Below, one piece after another: positions 9,804 to 16,104 of a stretch of 34,205 bases of DNA. The position numbers and the translations under genes were made by a program. Below the pieces are notes generated by a model, which did not search any database, was not told the origin of the DNA, and saw only the letters and a list, made by a program, of their open reading frames with translations. Positions within the stretch are counted from its first letter, which is position 1. Each line of letters starts with the position of its first letter. Source of the DNA: Chitinophaga pinensis (lineage in GTDB: Bacteria > Bacteroidota > Bacteroidia > UKL13-3); NCBI GenBank assembly GCA_945873755.1, contig CAMCEM010000015.1, forward strand, positions 1 to 34,205. The letters are read 5' to 3'.

Positions 9804-10496
9804 CTACAAACCAAAACTAATACCTAAACGCAAACGAGGAACTTCATAAACGGCAGGTGTATAACTCACTTTTTGAAACATATCGTTTAGTCTGTAATAA
9901 CCTACAAAATTAATTACATTATATCCAATTCTAACATACGCTTCGTGGTTAAAATCTTTAATATAATCAAGGTCGTGAACATATACTTCCATTAATTTAT
10001 TGTTTACATCTTTGGTTTGGTAGTAGTGCACTTTCGAAAAATTATACTTGCTCATAACTCCTATTTCGGTATACAGTTTTTTGTAAATATTTATCCTTGT
10101 TCCTAAACTTAATACAAAAGCACTAACAGTAAAATTTTCCATATCGTTTTTAATAATTGAAGGGAAAACAGTGTTTGTATCCGACTTTTTAAATGCATAC
10201 GATTCTAAGTTAAAACCCGATTGACTTACAATAGTAAATGTATTGTTTAATTTGTATTTTAAATTAAAATAAAAATTAACTCCTAACGAATTTTCTAATG
10301 TGCCTTTAAATCCTTTTTCGTCACCGCCACCATAAAAAGTAAAATCTATCATAAAGTCTGATCTTAATTTATCTTCATTAGTTACTTTTGTTGAGTCAAT
10401 AGTCTTACTTACTTCTTCTTCTAATACTACAGTTTGTGCTTTTAAATTGCAAAATCCTGCAATAATAATTGCTATTGTTAAAATTGTTTTATTCAT
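9804..10496 (-). CDS. Predicted outer-membrane beta-barrel protein, function unknown
   Basis: A 230-residue protein with a clear Sec signal peptide (MNKTILTIAIIIAGFCNLKA, cleavage likely near AQ). The mature part is rich in alternating polar/aromatic strands (for example FYFNLKYKLNN and YVRIGYNVINFVGYY) and ends in a strand RLRLGISFGL, consistent with a small outer-membrane barrel. I recognise no specific family. It starts 2 bp after the subtilase stop and ends 4 bp before menA, so the three are probably co-transcribed. There are no catalytic motifs, and no type IX secretion C-terminal signal is visible. It could be a membrane-integrity or assembly protein, but this is not shown. Confidence 0.7.
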   Translation of the reverse strand: MNKTILTIAIIIAGFCNLKAQTVVLEEEVSKTIDSTKVTNEDKLRSDFMIDFTFYGGGDEKGFKGTLENSLGVNFYFNLKYKLNNTFTIVSQSGFNLESYAFKKSDTNTVFPSIIKNDMENFTVSAFVLSLGTRINIYKKLYTEIGVMSKYNFSKVHYYQTKDVNNKLMEVYVHDLDYIKDFNHEAYVRIGYNVINFVGYYRLNDMFQKVSYTPAVYEVPRLRLGISFGL

Positions 10497-12975: not shown

Positions 12976-14271
12976 TTAATCTTTACGTTTTAAATTTTTC
13001 TTTTGTTTGGTAGGCATTTTGTTTATGCGCTTGTAATATCCTGATTTGCTTGCAGCAACAAAAAGTGTTAGTTTTTTTCCTTTTTGTACTTGGTTCGATT
13101 TTAACTTGTTCCACTTTTTTATATCGCCAATACCACAATCAAACCAATCGGCAATATCACTAATAACATCACCTCGTTTTACAACATAAAAAACTTTAGT
13201 TAATTTTACTTTTGGTGGGTTTAGTTCTTCTGCTTCCTTTTTTTGTTTTTTGTTTTTAGGTGTTACATTTTCAGGAATATTTGTAACAACTCCTGTGTGG
13301 TCTTGTTCATTTTGTGGGTCATCTTTTTGTATTAAAATTGGAGCTACATCAGTATTTATTGGTTTATAAACACTGTCGTTTAACAAATAAAATAGTTTCG
13401 ATTTATTTTTAGGTATTTTTATGTAATAGCCATCTACATTCAAAGGGATTATATCTTTTTTAAATATGGGATTTAACTTCCTAAGCTCATCTAAATCAGC
13501 ATTTAGGGTATTTGCAATTTGAGAAAGTGAAAGCCATTTATTAACCAAAACACTATCAGTATCGTAAAAAATTTCTGGTGCTGTTGCTTTTATTCCATGT
13601 TCTTTATAATAATTTAAAATATAGGTGGCAGCTACAAATTGGGGATATAAATCGCGGCAGTTAGAGGGTAAAAAAGGAAATATATCCCAATAATACAAAC
13701 TGTTTCCAGCCATTCTTATACATTTATTCATTGAAATGGGCGAGCAACCATAAGCACCAATTACCAATGGCCATTGCTTATAAATACTAAATAAATCTTT
13801 AAAATGTTGGGTAAAAACAGCTGATGATTTATTTACATCTCTTCTTTCATCCACATAAGTATTTACTTTTAACTTATACATTTTCGATACGGTGTAACTC
13901 ATGGTCCAAACTCCGCTTGCCCCATTTCCATTTGAAAATGTAGGATTTAATTCAGAGGAAGAAACAGCTAAATATTTTAAATCGGTTGGTAAACCTTTTG
14001 CTTTTAAATGTTTTTCTAAAATAGGAAAATAATATTTACTTAAACTTATCAATTCTCGCACTTTAGCAGGGTTTAATAAGTAATCATCTATGTGTTTTTT
14101 TACTTCAGTATTATAAATTAACTCCGTTTGCGAGCGCAATGATGATAGCCTTTGCGCATACAATTGGTCTTGTGCAAAAGATACAACAGGCCAAGTGATA
14201 ACAGTTAATAACAGAAGTGTTTTAACTGTTTTTAAAAAAAGTATAAATTTATTTGATATAGTAAAATTCAT
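12976..14271 (-). CDS. MltD-like lytic transglycosylase fold with LysM repeats, catalytic site altered
   Basis: A 431-residue exported protein. A signal/anchor segment is at about 8-34 (ends VVSFAQ). A lysozyme-like transglycosylase domain is at about 75-215, and LysM modules are at about 247-287 and 359-405. It ends in a basic tail. The fold is recognisable from GASGVW, KMYKLKVNTYVDERRD and AATYIL. The active-site consensus ESxxNPxA...GLWQFM is here SSELNP...GVWTMS. The Glu position (five before the Pro, residue 105) is Ser, although E107 is nearby. The AYNAG motif is AYGCS (173-177). It may therefore bind rather than cleave peptidoglycan. It lies 78 bp upstream of ndk and downstream of gatA on the same strand. 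Confidence 0.82.
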   Translation of the reverse strand: MNFTISNKFILFLKTVKTLLLLTVITWPVVSFAQDQLYAQRLSSLRSQTELIYNTEVKKHIDDYLLNPAKVRELISLSKYYFPILEKHLKAKGLPTDLKYLAVSSSELNPTFSNGNGASGVWTMSYTVSKMYKLKVNTYVDERRDVNKSSAVFTQHFKDLFSIYKQWPLVIGAYGCSPISMNKCIRMAGNSLYYWDIFPFLPSNCRDLYPQFVAATYILNYYKEHGIKATAPEIFYDTDSVLVNKWLSLSQIANTLNADLDELRKLNPIFKKDIIPLNVDGYYIKIPKNKSKLFYLLNDSVYKPINTDVAPILIQKDDPQNEQDHTGVVTNIPENVTPKNKKQKKEAEELNPPKVKLTKVFYVVKRGDVISDIADWFDCGIGDIKKWNKLKSNQVQKGKKLTLFVAASKSGYYKRINKMPTKQKKNLKRKD

Positions 14272-14362: not shown

Positions 14363-15790
14363 TTAAAGGTTGTTTGGTCTTATATAGTCTACCATTGCTA
14401 AAAGCTTAGCATCTTCTTTATTATTGGCCATTAATTGCAAGCCTATTGGCATTTTTTCGTTGTCTATTCCATATGGAAATGAAATAGCTGGAATACCAAC
14501 AATATTGGCATGTACAGTAAAAATATCAGCTAAATACATTTGAATTGGATCATTGCTTTTTTCTCCAATTTTAAATGCAGTTGTAGGTGTAGTAGGGGAT
14601 AATATAAAATCGAACTGATTAAAAATTTCTTGTGTTTTGTTAGCAACCAATCTTCTTACTTTTTGTGCTTTGGTATAATAAGCATCGTAATATCCAGCAC
14701 TTAAAACAAATGTGCCTAACATAATTCTTCGTTTAACTTCAGGTCCAAATCCTTCAGTTCTCGATTTACGAATAGTTGTTTCTAAATCAACGGCATTTTT
14801 ACTTCGTAAACCATAATGCATACCTGCAAAACGGGCTAAATTACTACTTGCTTCCGCAGTTGTTAAAGTGTAATAAATTGGAATTACATAGTTCAATTCA
14901 GGAAAACTGATTGGTTCTACTGTATGACCATCGTTTTTTAATTTTTCAATTAATTTAAAAGTAGCCTCTTTTACTTCAGGCTGAACGCCTTCCATATCGA
15001 TGGTTTCTTGAATGTAAGCTATTTTTTGTTTTTTATTTTCTAAATCAAATTTAAAATCTGTTGATGGTTCTTGAATAGATGTAGCATCGTTTTCATCTAT
15101 TCCAGCCATTATTGAAAGTAACAAACGGGTATCTTCAACCGATTTGGCAACAGTACCAATAATATCGAAACTGCTTGCATAAGCTATTAAACCCCAACGC
15201 GAAATTAATCCATAAGTAGGTTTGTAACCAAAATTTCCTGTAAATGCTGCTGGCTGACGAATAGAACCTCCAGTATCGCTGCCTAATGCGGCATGGCACA
15301 AATTAGCTTGAACCGAAACTGCTGAACCTCCCGAACTTCCGCCCGAAACTTTAGTATTGTCAAAATCGTTTAATACAGTTCCAAATGCTGAGTTTTCGTT
15401 CGATGCTCCCATTGCAAATTCATCGCAATTTAATCTACCAATTACAATAACATCTTCGTTTAAAAGTCTATCTAAAGCAGTTGCTGTGTATAGCGAAGTA
15501 AAGTTATCTAATATTTTTGATGATGCGGAAACTTTGTGGTTTTTATAACAAATATTGTCCTTTATGCCTATAACCATTCCTGCTACTTTACCAGCAGTTC
15601 CATTTGCAATCTTTTCATCAATTAATTGTGCTTGTGCTATAGCTTCATCAGCCCAAACCTCTAAAAAAGCGTTCAGATGTTTTTTGCTTTCAATGTTTTG
15701 TAAGTAATTAGTTACAATTTGAACAACGGAAGTTTTTTTGCTTTTTAGGGCATCGTTAATTTGGGTATATGAATTAAAATTTTCCAACAA
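14363..15790 (-). CDS. gatA: Glutamyl-tRNA(Gln)/aspartyl-tRNA(Asn) amidotransferase subunit A
   Basis: A 475-residue amidase-signature enzyme, the glutaminase subunit of GatCAB, which converts misacylated Glu-tRNA(Gln) to Gln-tRNA(Gln). The Ser-cisSer-Lys triad is visible: K77 in VIGIKDNI, the cis-Ser in SGGSSGGSAV (149-158) and nucleophile S176 in GSDTGGSIRQPA. The start is odd. There is no in-frame ATG near the conserved N-terminus, and an in-frame TAA lies 15 bp upstream of tandem TTG codons at 15790 and 15787, so translation must begin at a TTG. Homologues begin close to the YTQINDALKS segment, which supports this. It lies 101 bp downstream of tatA, from which it is separated by a hairpin terminator. 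Confidence 0.95.
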   Translation of the reverse strand: MLENFNSYTQINDALKSKKTSVVQIVTNYLQNIESKKHLNAFLEVWADEAIAQAQLIDEKIANGTAGKVAGMVIGIKDNICYKNHKVSASSKILDNFTSLYTATALDRLLNEDVIVIGRLNCDEFAMGASNENSAFGTVLNDFDNTKVSGGSSGGSAVSVQANLCHAALGSDTGGSIRQPAAFTGNFGYKPTYGLISRWGLIAYASSFDIIGTVAKSVEDTRLLLSIMAGIDENDATSIQEPSTDFKFDLENKKQKIAYIQETIDMEGVQPEVKEATFKLIEKLKNDGHTVEPISFPELNYVIPIYYTLTTAEASSNLARFAGMHYGLRSKNAVDLETTIRKSRTEGFGPEVKRRIMLGTFVLSAGYYDAYYTKAQKVRRLVANKTQEIFNQFDFILSPTTPTTAFKIGEKSNDPIQMYLADIFTVHANIVGIPAISFPYGIDNEKMPIGLQLMANNKEDAKLLAMVDYIRPNNL

Positions 15791-15832
15791 TTTTTTATTT
15801 TTTTAAAACTAAAATAGCTTTAATTATTAAAC

Positions 15833-15866
15833 AAAAAAATTCCTCTAAACGAAGAGGAATTTTTAA
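15833..15866 (-). terminator. Rho-independent terminator downstream of tatA
   Basis: The hairpin AAAATTCCTC-taaac-GAAGAGGAATTTT has A/T-rich flanks and lies about 26 bp past the tatA stop. It is placed between tatA and gatA on the minus strand, so gatA probably has a promoter of its own or depends on read-through. Confidence 0.75.
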
Positions 15867-15891
15867 AATTATTTTTGTAAAGAAAGAATAA

Positions 15892-16104
15892 TTATTCTGC
15901 TTCTTTTTTATCTTTAGCTTTCATACCATCTTCTATTTGGTCTTTCACACTTTTTTTGGCATCGTTAAATTCGCGCATACCAGTTCCTATACCGCGCATT
16001 AGTTCTGGAATTTTTTTTCCACCAAATAATAATAAAATAGCCAATAAAATTAATATCCATTCGCCACCACCTAAGTTTCCTATAAATAATAATGTGTAAT
16101 TCAT
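15892..16104 (-). CDS. tatA: Sec-independent translocase subunit TatA/TatE
   Basis: A 70-residue protein with classic TatA architecture. One transmembrane helix (about 15-28, WILILLAILLLFGG) is followed by the hinge GGKKIPELMRGIGTGMREF, an amphipathic helix, and a charged Lys/Glu-rich tail. TatA oligomers form the passage for folded proteins exported by the twin-arginine pathway with TatC. No tatC is in the window. ATG 16104 is well placed. A TACATTCG element about 20 bp upstream could be its -7 box, but the -33 partner is poor. Its own terminator follows, so it is likely monocistronic. Confidence 0.95.
   Translation of the reverse strand: MNYTLLFIGNLGGGEWILILLAILLLFGGKKIPELMRGIGTGMREFNDAKKSVKDQIEDGMKAKDKKEAE

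What the first reader, a model, noticed from the sequence alone, without database searches (positions are those of the whole stretch)
12976..14271. MltD-like protein with the catalytic glutamate position replaced by serine
The domain aligns well with MltD-type lytic transglycosylases, but the active-site ESxxNP motif reads S105-S-E-L-N-P, GLWQFM reads GVWTMS and AYNAG reads AYGCS. Three signature motifs have changed together while both LysM modules and the export signal are kept. This suggests a non-cleaving peptidoglycan-binding or scaffold protein, or use of E107, two positions away.
Basis: partly seen in the sequence, partly recalled or inferred. Interest (0 to 1): 0.58.

Follow-up and report, generated by a model that had tools for sequence, protein, structure and literature searches.

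The report
Conserved inactive cell-wall enzyme paralogue
A bacterial protein built like a cell-wall-cutting enzyme has lost its cutting residues, and its relatives across a whole bacterial order have lost them too while staying under strong selection, which suggests that it was kept for a job other than cutting.

Summary
The ORF at 12976-14271 (-) is an MltD-type protein (SLT domain, LysM) with Ser105 where E. coli MltD has catalytic Glu125. It is not a local mutation: in 50 of 50 genomes read from the window's family (14 of 14 genera; the only family held of its order) the position is never Glu. Of 63 distinct degenerate sequences, 60 keep none of five canonical active-site residues. Glu107 occurs in 24 of 63, so it is no general replacement. 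The gene sits in a tatA-gatA-mltD order that carries an intact MltD in other Bacteroidota families, and a second, Glu-bearing MltD was seen in 24 of 24 family genomes read. dN/dS of degenerate copies (median 0.055) matches intact ones (0.051). A C-terminal tail marks most degenerate copies and no intact one. Best reading: an old, selected pseudoenzyme that binds peptidoglycan and probably regulates or positions other hydrolases. Lack of activity is inferred; the regulatory role is untested.

The parts
12976..14271 (-). degenerate MltD-like protein, 431 aa (P0001)
   Evidence: ORF; Pfam SLT and LysM; orthologues
14173..14271 (-). N-terminal signal-like segment (residues 1-33, hydrophobic run then SFAQDQ); no lipobox Cys
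   Evidence: sequence; lipobox pattern in 2 of 63 degenerate rows; no signal-peptide program was run
13702..14016 (-). SLT (lytic transglycosylase) domain, residues 86-190
   Evidence: Pfam PF01464; AlphaFold2 model; P. aeruginosa MltD 8rhe_B Z 24.0, 252 aligned
13957..13959 (-). codon of Ser105 at the catalytic-glutamate position
   Evidence: aligned to E. coli MltD Glu125; A/L/S/V/I/M/N in 63 of 63 degenerate rows
   Evidence: Glu in 24 of 63 degenerate rows
13903..13905 (-). Thr123, canonical Gln of GLWQFM
   Evidence: Q in 2 of 63 degenerate rows, 121 of 123 Glu-bearing rows
13741..13749 (-). Gly175-Cys176-Ser177, canonical Asn-x-Gly of AYN(C/A)G
   Evidence: Asn175 in 0 of 63 degenerate rows, 123 of 123 Glu-bearing rows
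13648..13650 (-). Leu208, canonical Tyr of ETRGYVP
   Evidence: Tyr in 0 of 63 degenerate rows, 118 of 123 Glu-bearing rows
13063..13188 (-). LysM module, residues 362-403
   Evidence: Pfam PF01476
12979..13053 (-). C-terminal tail after LysM (residues 407-431, ending GYYKRINKMPTKQKKNLKRKD)
   Evidence: tail pattern in 49 of 63 degenerate rows (50 relaxed) and 0 of 123 Glu-bearing rows; found once in the own genome
14363..15790 (-). gatA, the adjacent upstream gene
   Evidence: Pfam Amidase 442 bits; conserved linkage
15892..16104 (-). tatA-like small protein, 70 aa
   Evidence: ORF; conserved upstream of gatA; named from its sequence (recalled) and from the finding, no family search was run on it

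Best explanation
An MltD paralogue at the tatA-gatA locus lost catalysis long ago and was retained as a secreted, peptidoglycan-binding pseudoenzyme. The SLT fold and LysM keep it on glycan strands without cutting. Its conserved remodelled groove (GxWxM, Y-x-x-S-P, R/K-D/E-x-Y-P) and, in the window's order, a conserved basic C-terminal tail probably bind a partner, most likely an active hydrolase such as the retained MltD paralogue. Shown by sequence: loss of residues, clade-wide conservation, purifying selection, co-occurrence with a Glu-bearing MltD. Inferred: no activity, export, glycan binding. Guess: the partner and the regulatory role.
For: Column 105 is never Glu in 50 of 50 family genomes read, 14 of 14 genera, nor in 63 distinct degenerate rows; 60 of 63 keep none of five canonical residues and 3 keep one, while 118 of 121 Glu-bearing MltD rows keep all five (two LysM-only rows dropped). 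E125A and E125K mutants of E. coli MltD are described as catalytically inactive (PMC10931528, passages), and Ala is the commonest residue here (18 of 63). dN/dS median 0.055 over 32 degenerate pairs against 0.051 over 10 Glu-bearing pairs; SLT domain of the 25 degenerate pairs printed 0.00-0.055. A second, Glu-bearing MltD was seen in 24 of 24 family genomes read and in 7 of 7 genomes with degenerate copies outside the family. SLT core pLDDT about 90-96, Z 24.0 to P. aeruginosa MltD. C-terminal tail 49 of 63 against 0 of 123. Precedent: DipM of Caulobacter, LysM plus an inactive LytM domain, activates the lytic transglycosylase SdpA (PMC10336132, passages).
Against: No activity, binding or partner was measured. 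The window protein has acids at 107 and 207, so a weak or altered activity is not excluded. The tail is missing in the five gatA-linked degenerate copies of families f38 and f53 and so is not essential to the wider group. The gene neighbours (tatA, gatA) name no cell-wall partner.
Confidence: 0.7

Rival explanations
1. Residual or altered catalysis with a migrated acid: Glu107, or Asp/Glu207 in motif IV, serves in place of the lost glutamate.
For: The window protein has both. Column 207 is acidic in 79% of degenerate rows against 2% of Glu-bearing rows. 52 of 63 degenerate rows have an acid at 107 or 207. Pseudoenzymes with migrated catalytic residues exist (PMC10211241, passages).
Against: 11 of 63 rows have neither. 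The Gln, Asn, Gly and Tyr of the other motifs are lost as well. In the model, helix 96-106 ends before residue 107; its distance to the groove was not measured.
Confidence: 0.1
2. Pure glycan-strand lectin or shield: it occupies glycan strands and protects them from active transglycosylases, with no protein partner.
For: SLT fold and LysM kept. Trp122, Asp141, Arg143 and mostly Tyr174 are unchanged from the intact enzymes. Inactive glycosidase-fold lectins are known (PMC3662789, search listing and start of abstract only).
Against: The conserved tail and the conserved new residues at motif positions suggest more than retained sugar binding.
Confidence: 0.15
3. Gene on the way to loss: a duplicate relieved of constraint because another MltD is active.
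For: Six of 64 family genomes show no full-length copy: G008 (fragment only), G034, G059, G068, G071, G080, all under 90% complete.
Against: dN/dS about 0.05 overall and 0.00-0.055 in the SLT domain of the pairs printed; open frames kept across 14 genera; a long orthologue in all family genomes of at least 90% completeness.
Confidence: 0.02
4. As to origin: repeated rather than single loss, several lineages having lost catalysis independently at the gatA locus.
For: Holding the degenerate and intact f38 copies together is not rejected (p-AU 0.14); one unlinked degenerate copy (L169, genome G131) falls apart from the rest.
Against: 25 of 26 degenerate rows lie on one side of a branch with support 90/96 on a tree without the motif columns; long branches limit trust.
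Confidence: 0.35

Closest known systems
MltD, family 1 (SLT) lytic transglycosylase of E. coli and P. aeruginosa (8rhe/8rhf/8rhi)
   Same: SLT fold, C-terminal LysM; Z 24.0 with 252 residues aligned; blastp E 1e-23 to E. coli MltD
   Different: Catalytic Glu and the Gln, Asn, Gly, Tyr of the other motifs replaced; no lipobox Cys; extra C-terminal tail
DipM and other degenerate LytM-domain regulators (EnvC, ActS)
   Same: PG-binding LysM joined to a dead hydrolase domain; DipM activates a lytic transglycosylase (PMC10336132, passages)
   Different: The dead domain here is SLT, not M23/LytM; no regulatory activity has been shown
GH18 chitinase-like lectins
   Same: glycosidase fold kept without catalysis (PMC3662789, listing and start of abstract only)
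   Different: unrelated fold (recalled); sugar binding not shown here
Intact gatA-linked MltD of other Bacteroidota families
   Same: same fold and same place downstream of tatA-gatA
   Different: catalytic motifs intact; the tail pattern is absent

Membership tests
Active MltD-type lytic transglycosylase | SLT domain over the Pfam cut-off | tested here: met
   36.2 bits against 21.3; 33 of 33 alignment members match at E up to 1
Active MltD-type lytic transglycosylase | catalytic glutamate | tested here: not met
   Ser105 at E. coli Glu125; never Glu in 63 degenerate rows
Active MltD-type lytic transglycosylase | Gln, Asn, Gly, Tyr of the further motifs | tested here: not met
   Thr123, Gly175, Ser177, Leu208; 60 of 63 degenerate rows keep none of the five canonical residues, 3 keep one
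Active MltD-type lytic transglycosylase | C-terminal LysM | tested here: met
   one LysM over cut-off; a second only by structural coverage
Active MltD-type lytic transglycosylase | NCBIfam equivalog cut-off NF008050 (murein transglycosylase D) | tested here: not met
   97.8 bits against 508; intact Bacteroidota MltDs were not scored, so this says little about activity
Active MltD-type lytic transglycosylase | 1,6-anhydro product formation | not testable with these tools
   needs an assay
Pseudoenzyme | conserved loss of catalytic motifs in a gene under purifying selection | tested here: met
Pseudoenzyme | a demonstrated non-catalytic function | not testable with these tools
LytM-factor regulators (DipM type) | degenerate M23/LytM domain | tested here: not met
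   no Peptidase_M23 among the Pfam matches of P0001 or of the 33 members

The most novel reading that the evidence does not exclude
An order-wide lytic transglycosylase pseudoenzyme: after duplication of MltD, the copy at tatA-gatA became a dedicated glycan-strand reader that, through its remodelled groove and a conserved basic C-terminal tail, recruits or gates the active MltD or another envelope machine. It would be the SLT counterpart of the dead LytM regulators.
Probability: 0.4. Interest if true: 0.68.

Novelty: new variant of a known kind. Interest (0 to 1): 0.52.

Why it matters
Dead peptidase-fold (LytM) proteins are known to control cell-wall hydrolases; my searches found no paper on a maintained dead lytic transglycosylase family (only openly licensed PMC texts are held). 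A clade with an active and a dead MltD side by side lets one ask what the SLT fold does without cutting. It also warns annotators: these genes match the SLT family over its cut-off and would be named transglycosylases.

Tried and rejected
Local mutation or sequencing error: rejected, since the change is in every family orthologue read (50 of 50 genomes). Pseudogene: rejected by open frames and dN/dS. Glu107 as a universal replacement: rejected (24 of 63 have Glu). Asp/Glu207 as a universal replacement: rejected (50 of 63 acidic, 11 of 63 with an acid at neither place), but not excluded for the window's own protein. Degenerate copy made anew inside each family: disfavoured by the tree, but for f38 not rejected (p-AU 0.14; the group was chosen after seeing the tree; the first run had not finished). 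Tail as a shared signal in the own genome: the 23-residue tail matched only the window gene. Distances in the structure model could not be measured because no coordinates are given. NCBIfam, the PDB sequence search and papers gave no name for the dead subfamily. The organisms behind families f38, f53, f60 and f28 could not be named.

Rows dropped before counts: L005 and L007, LysM-repeat proteins without an SLT domain that fell among the 123 'Glu-bearing' rows by alignment chance; 121 remain. Counts quoted as of 123 still hold these two. The gatA survey is selective: the 20 stretches were chosen because one search had already shown an MltD there. dN/dS pairs share sequences and are not independent. 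The enrichment of degeneracy at the gatA locus (Fisher test) is not corrected for kinship and I do not lean on it.

Full report
What is there. The ORF 12976-14271 on the minus strand encodes 431 residues: a hydrophobic N-terminal segment ending in SFAQDQ, an SLT domain (residues 86-190, 36.2 bits, cut-off 21.3), and a LysM module (362-403). No signal-peptide program was available, so export is read from the sequence. The AlphaFold2 model, made from an alignment of 49 rows, has mean pLDDT 83, with the SLT core mostly at 90-96 and a loose linker at 311-353. Its best structural match is P. aeruginosa MltD (8rhe_B: Z 24.0, rmsd 3.2, 252 aligned, residues 45-300); Foldseek and the sequence search also rank that protein first.

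The catalytic position. E. coli K-12 MltD (fetched) aligns with blastp E 1e-23; its LPIVESAFDP stands over LAVSSSELNP, so Glu125 corresponds to Ser105. E125A and E125K mutants of E. coli MltD are described as catalytically inactive (PMC10931528, passages). The Gln of GLWQFM is Thr123, the Asn and Gly of AYNxG are Gly175 and Ser177, and the Tyr of ETRGYVP is Leu208. That these are the usual active-site motifs of the family is partly recalled; the conservation counts below come from calls.

It is a clade-wide feature. The search of the window's family (64 genomes; the order search returned the same 64 genomes, all of this family) found the long, high-scoring orthologue in 58. The six without a full-length one (G008, with a fragment; G034; G059; G068; G071; G080) are all under 90% complete. 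I read the motif in 50 of the 64 genomes, covering 14 of 14 genera: column 105 is Ser, Ala, Leu, Val or Ile, never Glu. Over all loci, 186 distinct rows were aligned: 63 without Glu and 123 with it, two of the latter not MltD at all. Of the 63, 60 keep none of five canonical residues (Glu105, Gln123, Asn175, Gly177, Tyr208) and 3 keep one. Of the 121 true Glu-bearing rows, 118 keep all five and 3 keep four. New states are themselves conserved: in 43 less-redundant family rows Met124 in 42 (Phe in the 19 intact rows compared), Ser177 in 38 (Gly in the 19), Lys135 in 43.

Glu107. It is Glu in 24 of 63 degenerate rows and Gly, Met, Ala or others elsewhere. Another acid, at column 207 next to the lost Tyr, is much commoner in degenerate rows (79%) than in Glu-bearing ones (2%). 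Fifty-two of 63 have an acid at 107 or 207 and 11 have neither. Neither can be the common catalyst, but the window protein has both, so a local residual activity is not excluded.

Selection. Over 32 pairs of degenerate copies with dS under 2 the median dN/dS is 0.055, and over 10 Glu-bearing pairs 0.051; in the SLT domain alone the 25 degenerate pairs printed lie at 0.00-0.055. Pairs share sequences and are not independent, but a decaying gene is out.

Neighbourhood and origin. The order tatA-gatA-this gene is kept in the family. Two loci show no gatA between tatA and this gene (L061, L065), and genus g14 has the gene away from gatA. In other Bacteroidota families the gene after gatA is often an intact MltD. 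In the 60 gatA stretches hold an MltD after gatA: 23 with the Glu, 2 degenerate; 35 hold none in the stretch (the 20 were picked because an MltD was known there). Overall 55 degenerate and 44 Glu-bearing rows are gatA-linked, 8 and 77 are not (two rows dropped). Degenerate gatA-linked copies also occur in G159 (f53), G191 (f60) and G172, G139, G100, G203 (f38); G131 (f28) has an unlinked one. On a tree of 94 of the 186 rows, built without the motif columns, 25 of 26 degenerate rows lie on one side of a branch with support 90/96; L169 of G131 falls elsewhere. The bootstrap had not settled, branches are long, and holding the f38 degenerate and intact copies together is not rejected (p-AU 0.14). 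So one old loss is the simplest reading, but repeated loss is open.

An active-looking MltD remains. In 24 of 24 family genomes where I read the second MltD-type copy it has the Glu: 21, and those of G074, G075 and G022. All 7 genomes outside the family with a degenerate copy also have a Glu-bearing one. In the window's own genome (91% complete) the SLT family has three members: the gatA-linked gene, the intact MltD on contig 44 and a 304-residue protein on contig 8.

A private tail. After the LysM most degenerate copies carry about 25 residues of the form GYYKRINKMxxxQKKxxKxKD. A strict pattern fits 49 of 63 degenerate rows and 0 of 123 Glu-bearing rows, a relaxed one 50 of 63 and 0 of 123. 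Of the 13 that fail the relaxed pattern, seven are near variants by eye; the other six, which lack the tail, are the four f38 copies, the f53 copy and L169. The f60 copy and genus g14 have it. The tail is found once in the own genome.

Mechanism. Shown: loss of the residues, their clade-wide absence, selection, predicted fold, coexistence with a Glu-bearing paralogue. Inferred: no cutting, export, peptidoglycan binding through LysM and possibly the groove. Guess: a regulator or positioner of active hydrolases. The nearest working precedent is DipM, which joins LysM to a dead LytM domain and stimulates the lytic transglycosylase SdpA (PMC10336132, passages). The name 'pseudoenzyme' and its usual modes of action (allostery, scaffolding, competition, migrated residues) follow PMC10211241 (passages).

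Known or new. Six literature searches for dead or degenerate lytic transglycosylases gave no such family; the library lacks most subscription journals. I therefore rate it a new variant of a known kind: an MltD fold kept without catalysis.

Noticed in passing
L169 3897-5279 (genome G131, family f28): A second, apparently separate degenerate MltD-like protein (LPLSLSAYSPTE, GGAGYWNLQY) not next to gatA, in a genome whose gatA-linked MltD (L148) has the Glu.
   Followed up: partly
window 14363-16104 and L233-L252: tatA-gatA-mltD is a gene order shared by many Bacteroidota families, usually with an intact MltD; why a tRNA amidation gene and a Tat component travel with a cell-wall gene is unexplained.
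   Followed up: partly
window 12979-13053: Conserved basic C-terminal tail (GYYKRINKMxxxQKKxxKxKD) in most degenerate copies and in no Glu-bearing copy.
   Followed up: partly
window 13651-13653 (residue 207): Asp/Glu at column 207, beside the lost motif-IV Tyr, in 79% of degenerate rows against 2% of Glu-bearing rows.
   Followed up: partly
L155, L157-L160 (genus g14): The most diverged family copies (VITGYINE, DERYNV) are not next to gatA but keep the tail.
   Followed up: no
L061 and L065: gatA was not found between tatA and the degenerate gene in these two loci, though tatA is still close by.
   Followed up: no
G000:C8:28915-29220 (L003, L304): A 304-residue SLT protein with the catalytic Glu (LIESGL), a third SLT member of the genome; its short frame suggests no LysM, which was not tested.
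   Followed up: no
window 9804-10496: A 230-aa ORF with no Pfam match between a UbiA-type prenyltransferase and an S8 peptidase.
   Followed up: no
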